A stretch of 21,915 nucleotides of DNA. Source: Candidatus Vogelbacteria bacterium CG22_combo_CG10-13_8_21_14_all_37_9 (GTDB taxonomy: Bacteria; Patescibacteriota; Minisyncoccia; Phycocordibacterales; XYD1-FULL-46-19). A model generated the notes under the pieces. The model was not told where the DNA came from. It made no database searches and worked only from the letters and a program-made list of their open reading frames with translations. Positions 921 to 11,031 of this stretch are shown here, piece after piece (positions within the stretch are counted from its first letter, which is position 1; every line of letters begins with the position of its first letter). Where the stretch lies: contig PCSX01000035.1 in the NCBI GenBank assembly GCA_002772495.1, positions 1 through 21,915 of the forward strand, in the 5' to 3' direction. Both the position numbers and the translations under genes were made by a program.

Positions 921-1760
921 TTAGATATCTAACTCCAAACCAATAGGGGCGTGGTCGGACCCATAAACCTCCGTTTCAATCCAAGCTCGTTTAATTTTCG
1001 GCGCCAACTTTTGACTAACCCAAAAATAATCAATCCGCCAACCAACATTACGATCCCGAGCTCCGGCTCGATAACTCCACCAAGAGTACTCTACCTGATC
1101 AGGATGAAGATAGCGATAAGTATCAACAAAGCCAGCTTGAGCTAATTCATCAGCCCAAGCTCGTTCTTCAAAGGTAAACCCTGGATTACCGACATTTTCT
1201 TTCGGTCGAGCTAAATCTATTTCTTGGTGAGCCACATTAAAATCACCGCAAATTACGATTGGTTTAATTTTTTCTAAATCTTTTAGGTGTTTTAACAAAG
1301 CTTTATTAAAAGCCAGTTTGTAGTCTAAACGAGATAATTCACTATTAGCATTCGGAAAATAGACATTGATAAAATAAAATTTAGCTAAATCGGCAATCTG
1401 AACTCGACCCTCCTCATCTCCACCTAAGGCGCCCTGCCCGCCGGCAGGCAGGGATCCGTCTGGGTCGGAAAATTCTTGTGATCCAAAACCATTAGCTATC
1501 TTGGTCGGAATCTTAGATAAAATTGCTGTGCCACTATAACCGGGACGTTTGGCCGGATGCCAATACTCTTCATAATGATCAAAATCCCAGCCCAAGGCTG
1601 GTCCGCCTTGGGCGGAAAAAGTTTCCTTCAGTCTGGCCTCGTTGCTGATTTTAATTTCCTGTAAACCTAGTAAGTCCGGTTTAGCTTTTTTAAGCCAGTC
1701 AGAAAAACCCTTTTTACTCACCGCCCTAATTCCATTTACATTCCAAGAGATTAATTTCAT
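921..1760 (-). CDS. xth: Exodeoxyribonuclease III (AP endonuclease)
   Basis: Protein of 279 residues of the exonuclease III / ExoA family, which cuts DNA 5' of abasic sites in base excision repair with a divalent metal. Family motifs are clear: ISWNVNGIRA at residues 4-13, LQEIK with the metal-binding Glu near 35, PGYSGTAILSK near 73-83, GDFNVAH near 172-178, and the C-terminal GSDHAPIGLEL with the catalytic Asp-His pair. The start MKLISWNVNG is the usual start of the family. It lies 9 bases after the uracil-DNA glycosylase gene, so the two repair steps (base removal, then abasic-site cutting) are probably co-transcribed. Odd point: two short GC-rich palindromes sit in-frame and add Gly/Ala/Pro-rich stretches around residues 49-57 and 98-115, in loops between conserved blocks. 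Confidence 0.95.
   Translation of the reverse strand: MKLISWNVNGIRAVSKKGFSDWLKKAKPDLLGLQEIKISNEARLKETFSAQGGPALGWDFDHYEEYWHPAKRPGYSGTAILSKIPTKIANGFGSQEFSDPDGSLPAGGQGALGGDEEGRVQIADLAKFYFINVYFPNANSELSRLDYKLAFNKALLKHLKDLEKIKPIVICGDFNVAHQEIDLARPKENVGNPGFTFEERAWADELAQAGFVDTYRYLHPDQVEYSWWSYRAGARDRNVGWRIDYFWVSQKLAPKIKRAWIETEVYGSDHAPIGLELDI
1432..1453. repeat. In-frame GC-rich palindrome inside xth (site 2)
   Basis: A 22-base near-perfect palindrome, CCCTGCCCGCC followed by GGCAGGCAGGG, with one mismatched pair. On the coding strand it encodes about residues 103-110, within an insert of about 18 residues (SDPDGSLPAGGQG and onward) between QEF and DEEGRV, where related enzymes read through almost directly. 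Palindromes built on CCTGCC/GGCAGG are, from memory, common in Parcubacteria-like genomes. Confidence 0.7.
1590..1613. repeat. In-frame palindrome inside xth (site 1)
   Basis: Inverted repeat with 9-base arms GCCCAAGGC and GCCTTGGGC and a 6-base loop. On the coding strand it encodes residues 50-57, AQGGPALG, a loop after the metal-binding region. The arms are much more GC-rich than the surrounding gene. Confidence 0.65.
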
Positions 1761-1769
1761 TGACTCATT

Positions 1770-2396
1770 CTACTTAAAAGTCTTTAGAACCGCAAAATCT
1801 TTAATTAAAGTGGCTTTGAGCGCTTGATTGTAGATAGTGGCCGCCGGATGATAAAGCGGGACAAAATTAATCAAACCAAAACTCATTTCCAGTGGTAAAA
1901 CTTGCCCATGTAATTGACCAATTGTTCCAGTGGCTAATTTATATTTAGTTAATAAATAATCCATCGAGAAACGTCCGAGGGTGACAATCACACTTGGTTG
2001 GATAATTTCAATCTGTTGATCCAAAAAAGGAGCATAGTAATTAATTTCTTCTGGTAAAGGATCTCGATTGGTTGGCGGTCGATCTTTGACAATATTAGTG
2101 ATATAAACTTCGGCTCGCGACAAAGCAATACTATTCAATAATTTATCGAGGATTTTACCAGACGAACCACAAAACGGCCGGCCGGTTAAAGCTTCGTTTT
2201 TACCAGGGGCTTCTCCAATTAACATTATTTTGGCTTCAGAAGAACCATCGCCAATTACCGGCCAATATTGATTAGCGGTTCGATAAGCAAAAAGTGGCGC
2301 TTCGGTCGCCACTAATAACTGCTCTTTAATTTTTTTTAAGGCCAGATCTTTTTCAGCCTTAGTTTTAATTTTAGAGTGATTTTTTTTCTTCATCAT
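1770..2396 (-). CDS. Uracil-DNA glycosylase superfamily protein without Fe-S cysteines
   Basis: Protein of 208 residues resembling family 4 uracil-DNA glycosylases, which remove uracil from DNA. The catalytic motif GEAPGKNE is at residues 61-68, TGRPFCGSSG at 71-80, ITNIVKDRPPTNRDP at about 99-113, and the second active-site motif HPAA at 183-186. Classical family 4 enzymes bind a 4Fe-4S cluster with four cysteines (a CxxC before the first motif, VKCRPP, and one about 15 residues later). Here those places read APLFA, VKDRPP and NYYAPF, and the only cysteine is C76. So the fold and active site are kept but the cluster is absent. The N-terminal 25 residues are Lys-rich and the exact start among MMKKKNHS is uncertain. 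The gene overlaps mgtC by 26 bases and precedes xth by 9. Confidence 0.85.
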   Translation of the reverse strand: MMKKKNHSKIKTKAEKDLALKKIKEQLLVATEAPLFAYRTANQYWPVIGDGSSEAKIMLIGEAPGKNEALTGRPFCGSSGKILDKLLNSIALSRAEVYITNIVKDRPPTNRDPLPEEINYYAPFLDQQIEIIQPSVIVTLGRFSMDYLLTKYKLATGTIGQLHGQVLPLEMSFGLINFVPLYHPAATIYNQALKATLIKDFAVLKTFK

Positions 2397-2853
2397 TTTC
2401 TACCGTCAAATGATTACTTAAATGTTCTTGAAATGGTCGTTCAATAAAACCCAATAAGAAAACTAGAAGTGATAATAAAGCGGCGACAGTAGCCAGTCCA
2501 AACAAACCAAAACCACAAGCCATTCCGACTCCGGCCGCCAACCATAAACCAGCGGCAGTAGTCAGACCAGTTAATTTTGATTCTTTTAAAATAACTAAGC
2601 CTGCTCCTAGAAATCCAATCCCGAGAGGAATTTGACCGGCCATTCGAAGAGGATCAAAATTGGTCAGATTTAAATATTGAATCGAAACTTGCTCGGCAAT
2701 GACAATAAACAAAGACGCCCCTAAAGAGACTAGAGCATAGGTTCGTAAACCCGCCATTTTTCCAGCGGCAGTTCGTTCAATCCCTAAAATTGACCCTAAT
2801 AAAATTGCGACCACTAAACGCCAAGTAAGCGTGACTAAAGAATAGGTAATCAT
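2371..2853 (-). CDS. MgtC/SapB family membrane protein
   Basis: Protein of 160 residues with four or five hydrophobic segments. The family block ILGIERTAAGKMAGLRTYALVSLGA is at about residues 20-45, and the second conserved stretch, GIGFLGAGLVILKE followed by GLTTAAGLWLAAGVGMACG, at about 77-113. MgtC proteins sit in the inner membrane. In pathogens they are linked to Mg limitation and to modulation of ATP synthase, but their role in small-genome bacteria is unknown. This copy has the membrane domain and only a short charged C-terminal tail (VENDEEKKSL), so it lacks the soluble domain of Salmonella MgtC. It appears to be the first gene of the leftward operon with the glycosylase and xth, and a promoter ends 8 bases before its ATG. 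Confidence 0.88.
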   Translation of the reverse strand: MITYSLVTLTWRLVVAILLGSILGIERTAAGKMAGLRTYALVSLGASLFIVIAEQVSIQYLNLTNFDPLRMAGQIPLGIGFLGAGLVILKESKLTGLTTAAGLWLAAGVGMACGFGLFGLATVAALLSLLVFLLGFIERPFQEHLSNHLTVENDEEKKSL

Positions 2854-6432: not shown

Positions 6433-6843
6433 CTAACGATTCCGATTTCTCTCTCTCTGCACATCCTGCCAGAGATTACGAATCTCTCTCAGGCTCTCAC
6501 GCTGACGCCGCATCTTTTCGGCATCCGCGCGATCCTTTTGGATCTGGCGGTAAGCCTGGTCTCGACGGTAATTGTCGAGAGACCGTTGGGCCTCACGCTG
6601 ACGAGCTAGGCTGTTCCTTGCTCGATCGTTTTCGAGCTGGCGCTGTTCACGCGCCCACTCTAGACCCTCTCGTTCGGTCATCCCAAGCGAGGGCTGACCC
6701 GCCAAGACCTGTCGGGTTGACAGGACCTGTGTTCCCGATGCCCCAATTCCGGGATACATCGGAATAGTGGTCACACAACCACTACCCAGAACGACCCCGA
6801 CGAGCGCCAACAAAAAAAAGATCAAAAAACTCTTACTTTTCAT
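6433..6843 (-). CDS. Predicted lipoprotein with an Arg/Gln-rich coiled-coil tail
   Basis: Protein of 136 residues. The N-terminus MKSKSFLIFFLLALVGVVLGSGC is a lipoprotein signal peptide with lipobox LGSGC (Cys at residue 23). The mature part begins with a Pro/Gly/Thr-rich linker and continues, from about residue 54, as a long charged helix rich in Arg, Glu and Gln, probably a coiled coil, ending RERNRNR. An upstream in-frame ATG at 6915 is excluded because it lies in the -10 box. ATG 6843 has a good Shine-Dalgarno AGAGGAGA. The gene is far more GC-rich than its neighbours, stands alone between a consensus promoter and a strong terminator, and uses a TAG stop, so it looks acquired from another bacterium. 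I do not recognise the family. Its function is unknown; a surface or cell-wall location is inferred from the signal. Confidence 0.85.
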   Translation of the reverse strand: MKSKSFLIFFLLALVGVVLGSGCVTTIPMYPGIGASGTQVLSTRQVLAGQPSLGMTEREGLEWAREQRQLENDRARNSLARQREAQRSLDNYRRDQAYRQIQKDRADAEKMRRQRESLREIRNLWQDVQRERNRNR

Positions 6844-6913
6844 CCTATTCTCCTCTGACCTTGGCTCTGCCAAGATCGGTTGATTTTTCTCTATTAAACA
6901 CCATCTACCCTCC

Positions 6914-6942
6914 ATTATAGCAAATATAACCTAGTTTGTCAA
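6914..6942 (-). promoter_or_regulatory. Perfect sigma70 consensus promoter of the lipoprotein gene
   Basis: Minus strand TTGACA (6937-6942), exactly 17 bases, TATAAT (6914-6919): full consensus in both boxes. The expected transcript starts near 6907, giving a leader of about 64 bases with a hairpin (CTTGGC AGA GCCAAG, 6860-6874) and a Shine-Dalgarno sequence. No other promoter in the window is as canonical. Confidence 0.92.
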
Positions 6943-7311: not shown

Positions 7312-9006
7312 ATGAACGAGCCACTCGAAGAAAAACGAGATAAAAAACTGGCCGAACTCTACCAACAAGAGTCTGAAGAATTAGCTGTGGTTTTGGCTAA
7401 ACGTCACGGACTCCCCTATTTGGATCTTTCTAAAACGGCGATCAACACCGATGCCTTGCGTCTGATCCCCATGTTGCAAGCTCGCGAAGCTGGTATGATC
7501 GCTTTTAAAGTGATTGGTCGAACTATCTATCTAGCCACCATTGCTCCGGAAAATTCCCAAATCGCTGATTTGATTAAAGATTTTGAAAATAAAAATTTCA
7601 AAACTGAACTCTATTTAATTTCTGAAAACAGTTTATTCTTAGCTTTATCACGTTATGTGGAAATTTCCGAATCAGAAGCCTCGGATGCCGGTTTAATTCA
7701 AATTTCTGATCAACAAGTCGCCTCTTATCTGGAACGCCTTAAAACTTTTAAAGATGTTCAAGAAACTTTAACCGCGGAAAATCGCCGAGCTGAGCAAGGT
7801 TCCGGTATTTCGACAATTTTAGAAATGATTCTATCAGGCGCTCTGGCGATGAAGGCTTCGGATATTCATATTGAACCAGAACAAGAAACCACTCGTCTAC
7901 GTTATCGTTTGGATGGGGTCTTGGTTGATGTCTCCGAAATCTCCACGCGAATTTGTCGCCAAATTGTTTCGCGCATTAAATTAATGTCGGGAATGAAATT
8001 AAATATCAAATTAACCGCTCAAGATGGTCGCTTTAGTATTAAAGTATCTGGCGAAGAAATCGAAATTCGGTCTTCGGTTATTCCGAGCGCCTATGGTGAA
8101 TCAGTGGTAATGAGGGTGCTCGATCCTAAAAGTATTAAATTAAGTTTTGAAAATCTAGGTGTGGAAACTAAACTATTTAATGTTTTTAAACAAGAAATAA
8201 TTAAACCGAATGGTCTAATTCTCTTGACTGGTCCCACTGGTTCCGGAAAAACCACCACCCTGTATGCTTTCTTGCAACGAATTAATTCAGTGGGAACAAA
8301 AATTATCACGATTGAAGATCCGATTGAATATCATTTGAAAGGGGTCAATCAAACTCAAGTCAATCGCACCGCCAAATATACTTTTTTATCTGGTCTACGC
8401 AGTGCTCTCCGTCAAGACCCCGATGTGATTATGGTCGGAGAAATTCGAGATGAAGAAACGGCCGAAATTGCGATTAATTCAGCCTTAACTGGTCACCTAG
8501 TTTTTTCCACTCTTCACACTAATAATGCCGCCGGTACCATCCCCCGTTTAATCGATCTAGGAATTAATCCAAAAGTGATCAGTTCGGCTTTGACCATTAC
8601 CATCGCTCAGCGCTTGGTCCGAAAATTGTGCCCTGATTGTCGCCAAATCATTGAAACAACACCCGAAGAACAAAAACTTCTAAGGGCGGTGGTCGAATCA
8701 ATTAAAAATAAGCGCCCGGATTTGGCGCCAAGTGAAATTAGTCAGATTTATGGACCGGTCGGTTGTCTAAAGTGTAATAATACCGGCTATAAAGGACGAG
8801 AAGGAATTTTTGAAGCAATTCTAATGGACGAAGCGATTGCCAAAATTACCAACACCAATCCAGACGAGAAAGAAATTTGGAAAGCAGCCTTAGCTCAAGG
8901 GATCCTTGATATGCGTCAAGATGGAATTTTAAAAGTCTTGGCTGGAAAAACATCCCTCGATGAATTACGACGAGTAATTGATTTAACGGCTGAAATAATT
9001 TTATAG
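7312..9006 (+). CDS. pilB: Type IV pilus assembly / type II secretion ATPase
   Basis: Protein of 564 residues of the GspE/PilB family, the hexameric cytoplasmic ATPase that powers pilus extension or type II secretion. Residues 1-115 form the N-terminal MshEN-like domain. SGISTILEMILSGALAMKASDIHIEP (164-189) begins the N2 domain. The Walker A motif GPTGSGKTTT is at 307-316, the Asp box IITIEDPIEY at 331-340, Walker B DPDVIMVGEIRD at 369-380, and the His box HLVFSTLHTNNA at 395-406. Four zinc-binding cysteines are at 440, 443, 485 and 488 (CPDC, CLKC). All catalytic elements are present. No other pilus gene is adjacent, so whether it is PilB or GspE cannot be settled here. It ends with TAG. Confidence 0.93.
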   Translation: MNEPLEEKRDKKLAELYQQESEELAVVLAKRHGLPYLDLSKTAINTDALRLIPMLQAREAGMIAFKVIGRTIYLATIAPENSQIADLIKDFENKNFKTELYLISENSLFLALSRYVEISESEASDAGLIQISDQQVASYLERLKTFKDVQETLTAENRRAEQGSGISTILEMILSGALAMKASDIHIEPEQETTRLRYRLDGVLVDVSEISTRICRQIVSRIKLMSGMKLNIKLTAQDGRFSIKVSGEEIEIRSSVIPSAYGESVVMRVLDPKSIKLSFENLGVETKLFNVFKQEIIKPNGLILLTGPTGSGKTTTLYAFLQRINSVGTKIITIEDPIEYHLKGVNQTQVNRTAKYTFLSGLRSALRQDPDVIMVGEIRDEETAEIAINSALTGHLVFSTLHTNNAAGTIPRLIDLGINPKVISSALTITIAQRLVRKLCPDCRQIIETTPEEQKLLRAVVESIKNKRPDLAPSEISQIYGPVGCLKCNNTGYKGREGIFEAILMDEAIAKITNTNPDEKEIWKAALAQGILDMRQDGILKVLAGKTSLDELRRVIDLTAEIIL

Positions 9007-9017
9007 AACCACCCTAA

Positions 9018-9057
9018 ATCGATGGGAATAGAATGATCAGTTCGGCTTGAACCTTAC
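9018..9057 (+). repeat. Possible degenerate copy of a pilB segment
   Basis: This intergenic piece resembles pilB positions 8551-8602. Both have ATCGAT, then GGAAT, then an exact 15-base match TGATCAGTTCGGCTT (9034-9048 and 8576-8590), then GACC- and TTACC-like blocks in the same order with small gaps. It may be a decayed partial duplication, or coincidence extended by eye. Confidence 0.35.
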
Positions 9058-9058
9058 C

Positions 9059-9230
9059 AATCAAGACCATAAACCTCTAAGCAATCCCTTAGGTAGTGCT
9101 ACTTAAGTTAGGAAAATCTTAAAGGATAGACACAGCGTTCTCTACTACGAGGTAGAGGGCCATTACGTCCTTTTTGAAAAACCCGTTAGACCAAAATGAT
9201 CTAATTGCTTAGAGGTTTATGAGCTTGATT
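9059..9230 (+). ncRNA. Candidate structured RNA upstream of ruvB
   Basis: A closing stem of 18 perfect pairs (9068-9085 with 9204-9221) is extended, across a 2x2 internal loop, by 7 more pairs (AATCAAG 9059-9065 with CTTGATT 9224-9230). Inside are hairpins: 9088-9095/9100-9107 (8 pairs); 9121-9127/9167-9173 enclosing 9137-9145/9152-9160 (7 and 9 pairs); and a short TAGA/TCTA stem at 9187-9203. Several inner pairs are G-U when read as plus-strand RNA and would be A-C mismatches on the other strand, so the RNA probably runs rightward like its neighbours. No ORF covers it. It does not match the conserved cores I know for tRNA, SRP RNA, tmRNA or RNase P RNA, and the multi-branch form is unlike 6S RNA. 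It may be an independent RNA or a ruvB leader element, as it ends 34 bases before the ruvB ATG. Confidence 0.65.
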
Positions 9231-9264
9231 TCTCTGTTTCATAGCTTAGCATAAACAAAACCAT

Positions 9265-10287
9265 ATGTCAATAGGTAATTTACCAAATGAGGCTGACCAA
9301 TTAAATTCACCTAATGGTGATATTTTCCTTGATAAATCCTTGCGCCCAGAAATCTGGGGAGAATATGTTGGTCAAAAACCAATAAAAGATAACCTTAAAA
9401 TCTTATTGACTGCCGCTAAAGAGCGTCAGCATCCACCAGAACATCTCCTCTTTTACGGCCCACCTGGTTTAGGTAAAACCACAATGGCTTATCTTATCGC
9501 AAAAGAATTAGGGGCGCAAATCAAAGTGACCTCTGGTCCAGCGATTGAGAAGGTTGGTGACCTCGCTTCCATTCTAACAAATTTATCGGCTGGTGACATT
9601 TTATTTATTGATGAAGTCCATCGTCTAAATAAAATGATCGAAGAGGTCCTTTATCCAGCTATGGAATCTGGTTCTCTAAATATTATTATCGGCAAAGGTC
9701 CAGGAGCCCGAGTGATTCAATTGGAACTGCCACCTTTTACTTTAATTGCCGCAACCACTCGAGTGGCTTTAATTTCCTCTCCCTTACGTTCTCGTTTTTC
9801 AGGTGGTACTTTTCGTCTTGAATTTTATACGAAAGATGAAATTCAAGAAATTATTTTACGCTCCGCTAAAATTTTAGGAGTCACTCTAGCTGAAGAAGCA
9901 GCCAAAGAAATCGCCGAGCGGAGTCGTTTCACTCCCCGCATCGCTAACCATTTATTAAAACGTTGTCGAGATTATGCTCAAGTTTCTCGCCAAGATATTG
10001 ATCTTAAAAATGTTAAACAAGCACTCACTTTATTGGGGATTGATGATTTAGGTCTTAATGCCACTGATCGACAGATTCTAGAAGTAATTATTGAAAAATT
10101 TGCCGGCGGACCAGTTGGTTTAAATACCATTGCTACCGCTCTAGCCGAAGAAGACGCCACGATTGAAGATGTGAGCGAACCTTATTTAATTCAAGTGGGT
10201 TTATTAGAACGCACCCCTCGAGGACGAATGGTCACTCCTTTAGCTTATAAACATCTTGGTTTTGATTATCCGGCGGACAAACCGTAG
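9265..10287 (+). CDS. ruvB: Holliday junction branch migration helicase RuvB
   Basis: Protein of 340 residues, the usual RuvB length. [19 protein letters not shown] (26-44) opens the AAA+ domain. Walker [10 protein letters not shown] is at 65-73, Walker [11 protein letters not shown] at 112-121, the sensor [17 protein letters not shown] near 163-179, and the C-terminal winged helix [16 protein letters not shown] and [13 protein letters not shown]. RuvB hexamers drive branch migration of Holliday junctions with RuvA, which is not in this window. The 25 residues before LRP are longer and more polar than usual, but ATG 9265 is the only clear start. A weak promoter (TTGATT 9225-9230, TAGCAT 9247-9252) overlaps the end of the candidate RNA. 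It ends with TAG and is followed by a probable terminator. Confidence 0.97.
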
Positions 10288-10503: not shown

Positions 10504-11031
10504 ATGTCCGGTCATAATAAATGGTCTAAAATTAAGCAAAAAAAAGGACTAACTGATACTAAGCGGAGTAAATTATTTTCAATGCTGGTGCGAGCGATCA
10601 CGATTGAAGCCAAACGAGCTAGTGGTGATATAAATGATGCTGGTCTCAAAGCGGTCATTAGTAGAGCTAAGGAAGCTAATATGCCTTCAGATAATATTAA
10701 TCGAGCTATTAGCAAAGCCACCAGTAAAGAAGCCGAGACTTATGAAGAATTAATTTATGAAGTTTATGGACCCGGTGGAGTCGCGATTATTATTGAAGCC
10801 TTAACTGATAATCGCAATCGAAGCACTCCAGAAATTAAACATCTCTTATCAGAGTTTGGACTTAGTTTAGGGGCGAGTGGTTCAGCTCTTTGGGCTTTTA
10901 GTAAAGAAGATGGACAGTTTAAACCTAAAACTTTAATTCCTCTTTCCCCTACTGATCAAGCTAAATTAGCTTTAATTATTGACCAACTAGAAAATCACGA
11001 CGATGTTAAAAACGTCATCACCAACAACTAA
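10504..11031 (+). CDS. yebC: YebC/TACO1 family protein, short form
   Basis: Protein of 175 residues. It opens with the family signature MSGHNKWSKIKQKKG and continues with AKRASGDINDAGLKAVISRAKEANMPSDNINRAI and YEVYGPGGVAIIIEALTDNRNR. LGASGSALWAF is at about 125-135, and the C-terminal block NHDDVKNVITN is the normal end of the family. Between residues about 136 and 150 there are only a few residues where full-length YebC (about 240 residues) has about 65 more, so most of the third domain is deleted. YebC proteins bind DNA and regulate genes; members of the family also relieve ribosome stalling at proline stretches. The gene overlaps ruvC by 29 bases, the usual yebC-ruvC pairing. There is no Shine-Dalgarno sequence; ATG 10504 is fixed by the signature. 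Confidence 0.93.
   Translation: MSGHNKWSKIKQKKGLTDTKRSKLFSMLVRAITIEAKRASGDINDAGLKAVISRAKEANMPSDNINRAISKATSKEAETYEELIYEVYGPGGVAIIIEALTDNRNRSTPEIKHLLSEFGLSLGASGSALWAFSKEDGQFKPKTLIPLSPTDQAKLALIIDQLENHDDVKNVITNN

What the first reader, a model, noticed from the sequence alone, without database searches (positions are those of the whole stretch)
9059..9230. Unassigned structured RNA between pilB and ruvB
A 172-base segment closes on itself with 18 perfect pairs plus 7 more across a 2x2 internal loop, and holds three inner hairpin branches. Several inner pairs are G-U on the plus strand and would be A-C on the other strand, as expected for an RNA rather than a DNA-level palindrome. It has no ORF and does not match the cores of the common housekeeping RNAs as I remember them. 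It ends 34 bases before ruvB, so it could be a stand-alone small RNA or a leader that controls ruvB.
Basis: partly seen in the sequence, partly recalled or inferred. Interest (0 to 1): 0.8.

Follow-up and report, generated by a model that had tools for sequence, protein, structure and literature searches.

The report
New bacterial RNA gene beside ruvB

Summary
The folded segment at 9059-9230 is real (z -8.2 plus strand, -7.6 minus strand). It is best read as a stand-alone RNA gene on the MINUS strand, not a ruvB leader. (1) In 36 homologues 48 of 54 pairs have changes on both sides; 320 such cells against 99.5 in shuffles. (2) Model R2 finds the RNA in 38 of 40 genomes, own included; pilB> <RNA ruvB> holds at 37 of 38 main loci, and the 38th contig ends before ruvB. 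(3) A sigma-70-like promoter precedes the RNA on the minus strand at 54 of 56 loci, against 2 of 56 on the other strand. In the window its -35 box overlaps the ruvB start codon. No Rfam family fits. tmRNA, RNase P RNA and 6S-like RNAs of this group lie elsewhere, and SRP parts were not found. Best reading: a new structured RNA of one Patescibacteria class (Paceibacteria), probably a trans-acting housekeeping RNA bound by a protein through its conserved apical arm. Expression and function were not tested.

The parts
9059..9230 (-). the RNA gene: 172-nt four-way junction RNA (P1-P4) on the minus strand
   Evidence: fold z -7.62; R2 match at 9060-9229, 139.1 bits on minus against 61.5 on plus (same places); covariation. 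R2 was trained on minus-strand rows that include this one.
9243..9271 (-). promoter-like site: -35 TTGACA at 9266-9271, 17-nt spacer, TG-C before the -10 hexamer TAAGCT (9243-9248, 3 of 6 to consensus); the -35 lies inside ruvB codons 1-3
   Evidence: a site scoring 10 or more of 13 at 54 of 56 loci. The stricter scan tool lists none here. A start site near 9236 is inferred, not measured.
9204..9230 (-). P1 closing stem, 5' arm
   Evidence: helix 1: 26 pairs, all with double changes, 94.6% of cells paired
9059..9085 (-). P1 closing stem, 3' arm
9187..9203 (-). P2 hairpin, flush with P1
   Evidence: 6 pairs with double changes but only 68.8% of cells paired in the 36-sequence alignment
9111..9184 (-). 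P3 long apical arm, from GGG to CC
9123..9171 (-). P3 core AGGAC...AUCCU, the most conserved part, with a U-G/G-U tandem in most rows; inferred protein-binding site
   Evidence: invariant columns; pairs; binding is inference
9088..9107 (-). P4 hairpin before the 3' arm of P1
   Evidence: (4 pairs)
9265..10287 (+). ruvB, divergent neighbour
   Evidence: NF000868 RuvB 461 bits, over cut-off
7312..9006 (+). pilB-like type IV pilus ATPase, convergent neighbour
   Evidence: TIGR02538 E 3.4e-147, below its curated cut-off

Best explanation
A stand-alone, trans-acting structured RNA, a new RNA family of one Patescibacteria class (Paceibacteria by record titles and recall; the genome tool names no class). 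Shown by sequence: it is encoded on the minus strand, has its own sigma-70-like promoter, folds into a conserved four-way junction (long closing stem P1, hairpins P2 and P4, long arm P3 with a near-invariant core), occurs as a rule once per genome and is found in 38 of the 40 nearest genomes searched. Inferred: it is made constitutively and in quantity, P1 protects and frames the molecule, and the P3 core binds a protein, so that the RNA works as the RNA part of a ribonucleoprotein with a housekeeping role, comparable in standing to 6S or SRP RNA but identical to neither. I put about 0.93 on the minus-strand stand-alone RNA; the number below is for the whole statement, mechanism included.
For: Covariation: 48 of 54 pairs with double changes; 320 double-change cells against 99.5 +/- 10.2 in shuffles and at most 106 when partners are slid by 1-3 columns. 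Presence: 38 of 40 genomes, 16 of 16 in the same family, own genome included. Of 80 ruvB loci fetched with RuvB alone, 66 carry a minus-strand R2 match at E <= 0.01 within about 450 bases upstream of ruvB (my count from the table); 18 of the 80 are rows of the model and 6 more repeat sequences of it. Their titles name Vogel-, Nomura-, Yonath-, Campbell-, Kaiser-, Sung- and Yanofskybacteria among others. Promoter score 10 or more of 13 on the RNA strand at 54 of 56 loci against 2 of 56, and at 26 of 26 primary loci fetched later, L213-L238, some of which repeat genomes already seen. Strand: G-U 214 to A-C 55. Order pilB> <RNA ruvB> at 37 of 38 main loci. Nine ruvB loci not used for the model (five titled Yonathbacteria) fold into the same four-way layout on their own alignment.
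Against: No transcript was seen: no RNA-seq was available. No protein partner is known. The steady neighbourhood with ruvB could mean a local role. Under the stricter filters R2 finds only 105 of 383 class genomes and none outside the class (17 of 379, all own class), so phylum-wide housekeeping is not shown. Two of 40 genomes (G016, 61% complete; G039, 97% complete) gave no match. Fourteen of the 80 ruvB loci gave none at E <= 0.01. Terminators are not consistent: a run of five T within 25 nt after the 3' end at 15 of 56 loci on the RNA strand against 7 of 56 on the other. P2 pairs in only 68.8% of cells. The structure was derived from the same rows on which pairs were counted, and promoters were scored after I had noticed them by eye.
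Confidence: 0.6

Rival explanations
1. Local regulator of ruvB: the divergent promoter, whose -35 sits on the ruvB start codon, and the RNA, antisense to any ruvB message that starts upstream, set ruvB output.
For: ruvB is the divergent neighbour at 37 of 38 main loci; in the window the -35 box overlaps the ruvB start codon.
Against: Promoter interference or antisense pairing needs no four-way junction, yet the fold is under strong selection. pilB on the other side is just as constant (38 of 38 main loci), so the block as a whole is static. The estimated gap from RNA to the ruvB start varies from about 0 to about 300 nt. G033 has a copy without ruvB or pilB beside it, though that contig could come from another organism.
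Confidence: 0.15
2. A second 6S RNA (6S-2-like) that binds RNA polymerase; the layout of closing stem, apical arm and 3' hairpin resembles 6S.
For: The own 6S candidate has the same order of closing stem, GGG..CCC apical arm and 3' hairpin.
Against: RF00013 gives no match to this RNA up to E 10, and among 40 genomes its six weak hits at E up to 10 all lie on other contigs than the RNA. A separate 6S candidate exists in the own genome, found by motif (18.5 bits, not listed by the whole-genome search), and 6S-like sequences in G008, G032 and G034. In the window the 5' side of the junction is filled by P2, so there is no open bubble. R2 on the own 6S candidate gives only an edge overlap at E 0.2.
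Confidence: 0.08
3. A stand-in for the missing SRP RNA in protein targeting to the membrane.
For: SRP RNA is the one common housekeeping RNA not found: RF00169 0 of 31 genomes at E <= 1, controls 13 of 14, and 0 of 192 in the phylum at E <= 0.01 with stricter filters, controls 11 of 14.
Against: Its protein partner is not found either: SRP M domain PF02978 0 of 16, controls 14 of 14; no convincing Ffh/FtsY-like hit in the own genome, best E 0.40 (the same kind of test found E. coli trmD but missed rplS, rimM and rpsP, so its power is limited). The RNA gives no Rfam SRP match.
Confidence: 0.05
4. Plus-strand leader of ruvB.
For: The nearly perfect closing stem folds on both strands and the segment ends 34 bases before ruvB.
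Against: Promoters, consensus energy and wobble pairs point to the minus strand; upstream of it on the plus strand only 2 of 56 loci have a site scoring 10 or more, and the mean (8.4) is no higher than in shuffles (8.7).
Confidence: 0.03

Closest known systems
6S RNA (RF00013)
   Same: RNA of similar size with a long closing stem, an apical arm and a 3' hairpin
   Different: No RF00013 match; the window's junction has a P2 hairpin where 6S has an open 5' strand; the CACCCACCT motif seen in the 6S hits of this phylum is absent; a separate 6S candidate lies elsewhere in the same genome
Bacterial SRP RNA (RF00169)
   Same: Would be a universal stand-alone RNA; not otherwise found in this group
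   Different: No RF00169 match, and the M domain of Ffh is not found
Large structured RNAs of unknown function found by comparative genomics (raiA, OLE, ROOL, GOLLD; recalled, three of them named in an abstract listed)
   Same: Conserved, structured, stand-alone, function unknown at discovery (recalled)
   Different: No match to any Rfam family; different size, layout and hosts (recalled)

Membership tests
6S RNA (RF00013) | Covariance model score at or over the gathering score | tested here: not met
   No RF00013 match in the window at gathering score nor in 8980-9300 at E up to 10; 0 of 20 relatives' loci had a match at gathering score for any family
6S RNA (RF00013) | Open central bubble with an unpaired 5' strand | tested here: not met
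   P2 hairpin fills the 5' side in the window fold; six P2 pairs with double changes but 68.8% of cells paired, weaker in the Nomurabacteria-type rows, so this holds best for the window's group
6S RNA (RF00013) | Binds sigma-70 RNA polymerase and templates pRNA | not testable with these tools
   needs biochemistry
SRP RNA (RF00169) | Match to the Rfam model | tested here: not met
   0 of 31 genomes including the own one at E <= 1
SRP RNA (RF00169) | Partner protein Ffh with M domain present | tested here: not met
   PF02978 0 of 16, controls 14 of 14
tmRNA (RF00023) | Match to the family model or to ARAGORN's tmRNA search | tested here: not met
   The own tmRNA lies elsewhere, G000:C17:9577-9955; ARAGORN finds nothing in the window; no Rfam match here
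RNase P RNA class A (RF00010) | Family model match | tested here: not met
   No match here; 28 of 31 genomes have a match at E 5.2e-9 or better, none at the RNA's place; the own genome (93.6% complete) gave none anywhere
Cis-acting leader of ruvB | Same strand as ruvB | tested here: not met
   Minus-strand promoter score at 54 of 56 loci against 2 of 56; wobble count 214 to 55
Transposon end or MITE | Many copies per genome | tested here: not met
   One copy in the own genome; one full-length location in 37 of 38 matching genomes, two in G033
New structured RNA family | Compensatory changes beyond shuffled and slid controls | tested here: met
New structured RNA family | Expressed as a separate transcript | not tested
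   No RNA-seq at hand; promoter evidence only

The most novel reading that the evidence does not exclude
A housekeeping ribonucleoprotein RNA of the class Paceibacteria that no one has described, kept in nearly every genome of the order in a lineage where SRP parts are not found, and serving a basic process such as protein targeting, ribosome function or polymerase control through a protein that recognises the P3 core.
Probability: 0.35. Interest if true: 0.9.

Novelty: categorically new. Interest (0 to 1): 0.72.

Why it matters
Patescibacteria have very small genomes and are thought to keep little that is dispensable (recalled), so a structured RNA found in 38 of 40 near genomes, as a rule once, with its own promoter, is a good candidate for an essential RNA. 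It sits outside Rfam 15, so annotation that relies on Rfam misses it. It gives a defined target for metatranscriptomics and pull-downs in a group for which my searches showed little RNA biology. That SRP RNA and the SRP M domain were not found in the genomes sampled makes the question of which RNAs these cells depend on directly testable.

Tried and rejected
Rfam at gathering score and at permissive E-values on the window and on relatives' loci gave nothing over the RNA beyond two chance-level matches. 6S was my main suspect for a while because the layout is alike. I dropped it when weak RF00013 hits in relatives fell at other loci, when three of those loci, read out, carried the 6S motif or a one-base variant of it (two more, L131 and L132, were fetched but not read), and when a 6S candidate turned up in the own genome. 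SRP RNA by elimination was dropped because its protein partner is not found. Phage collection: no match. The consensus-promoter tool found no site in 8800-9500: its rule wants four of six matches in the -10 box, and this one has three plus the TG before it. My first window pattern for the promoter had the wrong spacing and found nothing; the corrected one found it and one other site, and 3 of 100 shuffles also held two. In the first covariance model R1 I mistyped the structure, shifting P3 by three columns; R1 was used for one look at the loci, whose match ends served as coordinates for some rows of A2 and; the presence counts in this report come from R2. A fuzzy script for choosing the strand was ambiguous, so I assigned strands for the seed by eye from the ruvB direction and the core motif. 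Promoter hexamers were scored after I had noticed the promoter by eye; the other strand and loci fetched later are the controls. Dropped before counts: seven redundant or false seed loci (L029, L032, L033, L053, L065, L067 and L100) and the second tandem copy L014:1702-1879. The alignment of 6S hits was poor and no model was built from it. Papers: search listings only for (two returned no paper); passages by term search for PMC8321541, PMC11109978, PMC8632094 and PMC11383801. None of these listings or passages showed this RNA; that is the full extent of my claim that it is not in print.

Full report
What is there. Folding energy is far below shuffles on either strand (z -8.2 plus, -7.6 minus), so energy alone does not give the strand. 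There is no ORF of 20 aa or more inside and one copy in the genome.

Homologues. BLAST with the segment finds 17 of 99 relatives. A separate scan with RuvB alone brought 80 loci from named genomes. Reading upstream of ruvB showed the same RNA with much changed sequence in many of them. A 25-sequence alignment gave a consensus with 31 of 42 pairs showing double changes, and a 36-sequence alignment 48 of 54. In one search, 89.1% of cells pair, against 74.8% in shuffles and at most 52% when slid; double-change cells are 320 against 99.5 in shuffles and at most 106 when slid. P1 has double changes at all 26 pairs. Four P3 pairs never vary and say nothing for or against the structure. Relatedness inflates the shuffle test; the slid control keeps relatedness but favours a structure derived from the same rows.

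Strand. Three lines point to the minus strand. First, RNAalifold gives -89.4 for the minus and -75.1 for the plus strand of the same 25 rows. Second, G-U cells exceed A-C cells 214 to 55, with more G-U in 34 of 36 rows and P4 alone leaning the other way; the structure was chosen on the minus strand, which biases this, but P1, which both strands can form, also shows 59 to 19. Third, a sigma-70-like site (TTGACA and TATAAT matches plus one point for TG before the -10, spacer 16-18) scoring 10 or more of 13 stands within 200 bases 5' of the RNA on the minus strand at 54 of 56 loci; 50 of the 56 best sites have the exact TTGACA and 52 the TG. The other strand reaches that score at 2 of 56; the means are 11.3 and 8.4, and 8.7 in shuffles. 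Among 39 loci in the 38 matching genomes, 12 of them also in or equal to loci, it is 38 of 39 against 3 of 39. In the window the site is at 9243-9271 on the minus strand, with the -35 box on ruvB codons 1-3.

Spread. Model R2 finds the RNA in 38 of 40 genomes (own included) when laxer filters apply; among the better genomes in 32 of 33. With the stricter filters used for large sets it finds 105 of 383 class genomes, and 17 of 379 in a phylum sample, all 17 from the same class. Sixty-six of the 80 ruvB loci carry it at E <= 0.01 within about 450 bases upstream on the minus strand (my count; 18 of the 80 are rows of the model, 6 more repeat such rows). One of the 66, L084, has a record title that says Gracilibacteria, although its sequences group with the Nomurabacteria-type ones; I did not resolve this. 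Of the 14 others, one (L074) has only about 300 bases of contig upstream, two (L095 at E 0.25, L096 at E 0.015) had weaker matches at the right place, and 11 gave none. In the 38 matching genomes, ruvB is the divergent neighbour at 37 main loci; the 38th contig has only 329 bases on that side. pilB is the convergent neighbour at all 38. Four genomes also gave one extra short match of 40-46 bases each, and G033 has a second full copy with other neighbours.

What it is not. Rfam has no family for it. tmRNA is elsewhere in the own genome and over the cut-off in 28 of 31 genomes. RNase P RNA matches at E 5.2e-9 or better in 28 of 31 genomes, never at this place; the own assembly shows none, which at 93.6% completeness may be a gap. 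SRP RNA: 0 of 31 at E <= 1 with 13 of 14 controls ringing, and 0 of 192 at E <= 0.01 with 11 of 14 controls (stricter filters); the SRP M domain 0 of 16 against 14 of 14 controls. 6S: RF00013 rings in 19 of 286 phylum genomes, 3 of them over the cut-off, with no ruvB or pilB hit in the fetched flanks of about 1.5 kb, two of the 19 being cut by contig ends. Among 40 genomes six weak hits fall at other places than the RNA; three of them read out show CACCCACCT or a one-base variant. The own genome has a 6S candidate on contig C20, found by that motif, with closing stem and apical arm, 18.5 bits to RF00013, below its gathering score of 46.4; the whole-genome search with RF00013 did not list it. 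The ruvB-side RNA is therefore most likely a further RNA.

How it most likely works. Shown: a separate gene by promoter-like site, strand, structure and spread. Inferred: constitutive and strong expression, from a near-consensus promoter; a trans role, from structure conservation that neither promoter interference nor antisense pairing needs; a protein site in P3, because AGGAC/AUCCU and the U-G/G-U tandem are the least changed part and seem to recur with a shortened loop in the distant ruvB-linked sequences that I compared by eye only. Not shown: any transcript, partner or phenotype.

Novelty. It fits no catalogued family tested here and fails the membership tests for 6S, SRP RNA, tmRNA, RNase P RNA and ruvB leaders. 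It works, as far as can be said, like other stand-alone housekeeping RNAs. The literature searches named under Tried and rejected did not show it; the two RNA-discovery papers I searched by term do not mention Patescibacteria, Parcubacteria or ruvB in the main text. The odds are those of the returned draft, except that a stray separate figure for the mechanism alone (0.55) was dropped because it did not fit the overall 0.6.

Noticed in passing
own genome G000 and relatives: No SRP parts found: SRP RNA RF00169 0 of 31 genomes and 0 of 192 in the phylum, Ffh M domain 0 of 16, no convincing Ffh/FtsY-like tblastn hit in the own genome (the same kind of test also missed rplS, rimM and rpsP).
   Followed up: partly
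L186 (G000:C20) 1768-1902, minus strand: A 6S RNA candidate of the own genome, below the Rfam gathering score (18.5 against 46.4 bits) but with closing stem, apical arm and the CACCCACCU motif.
   Followed up: partly
L239 (G033:C9) 1501-1658, minus strand: A second full-length copy of the RNA with neither ruvB nor pilB beside it and no clear promoter; it starts right at the end of a small ORF. It could be a moved copy or a contig of another organism.
   Followed up: partly
L067 2550-2728, 2750-2927 and perhaps 2295-2509, minus strand: The RNA is in tandem: two good copies and a weaker third (E 5.4e-5) upstream of ruvB in one Paceibacterota genome.
   Followed up: no
window 6918-6942, minus strand: Another TTGACA..TGCTA promoter-like site, just before the ORF at 6433-6915, which matches no NCBIfam model at E <= 0.001.
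   Followed up: no
window 10504-11031, plus strand: YebC-like protein of 175 aa whose best stretch covers profile positions 1-137 of 245 and whose ORF overlaps the start of ruvC: a shortened YebC, or an annotation or frame effect.
   Followed up: no
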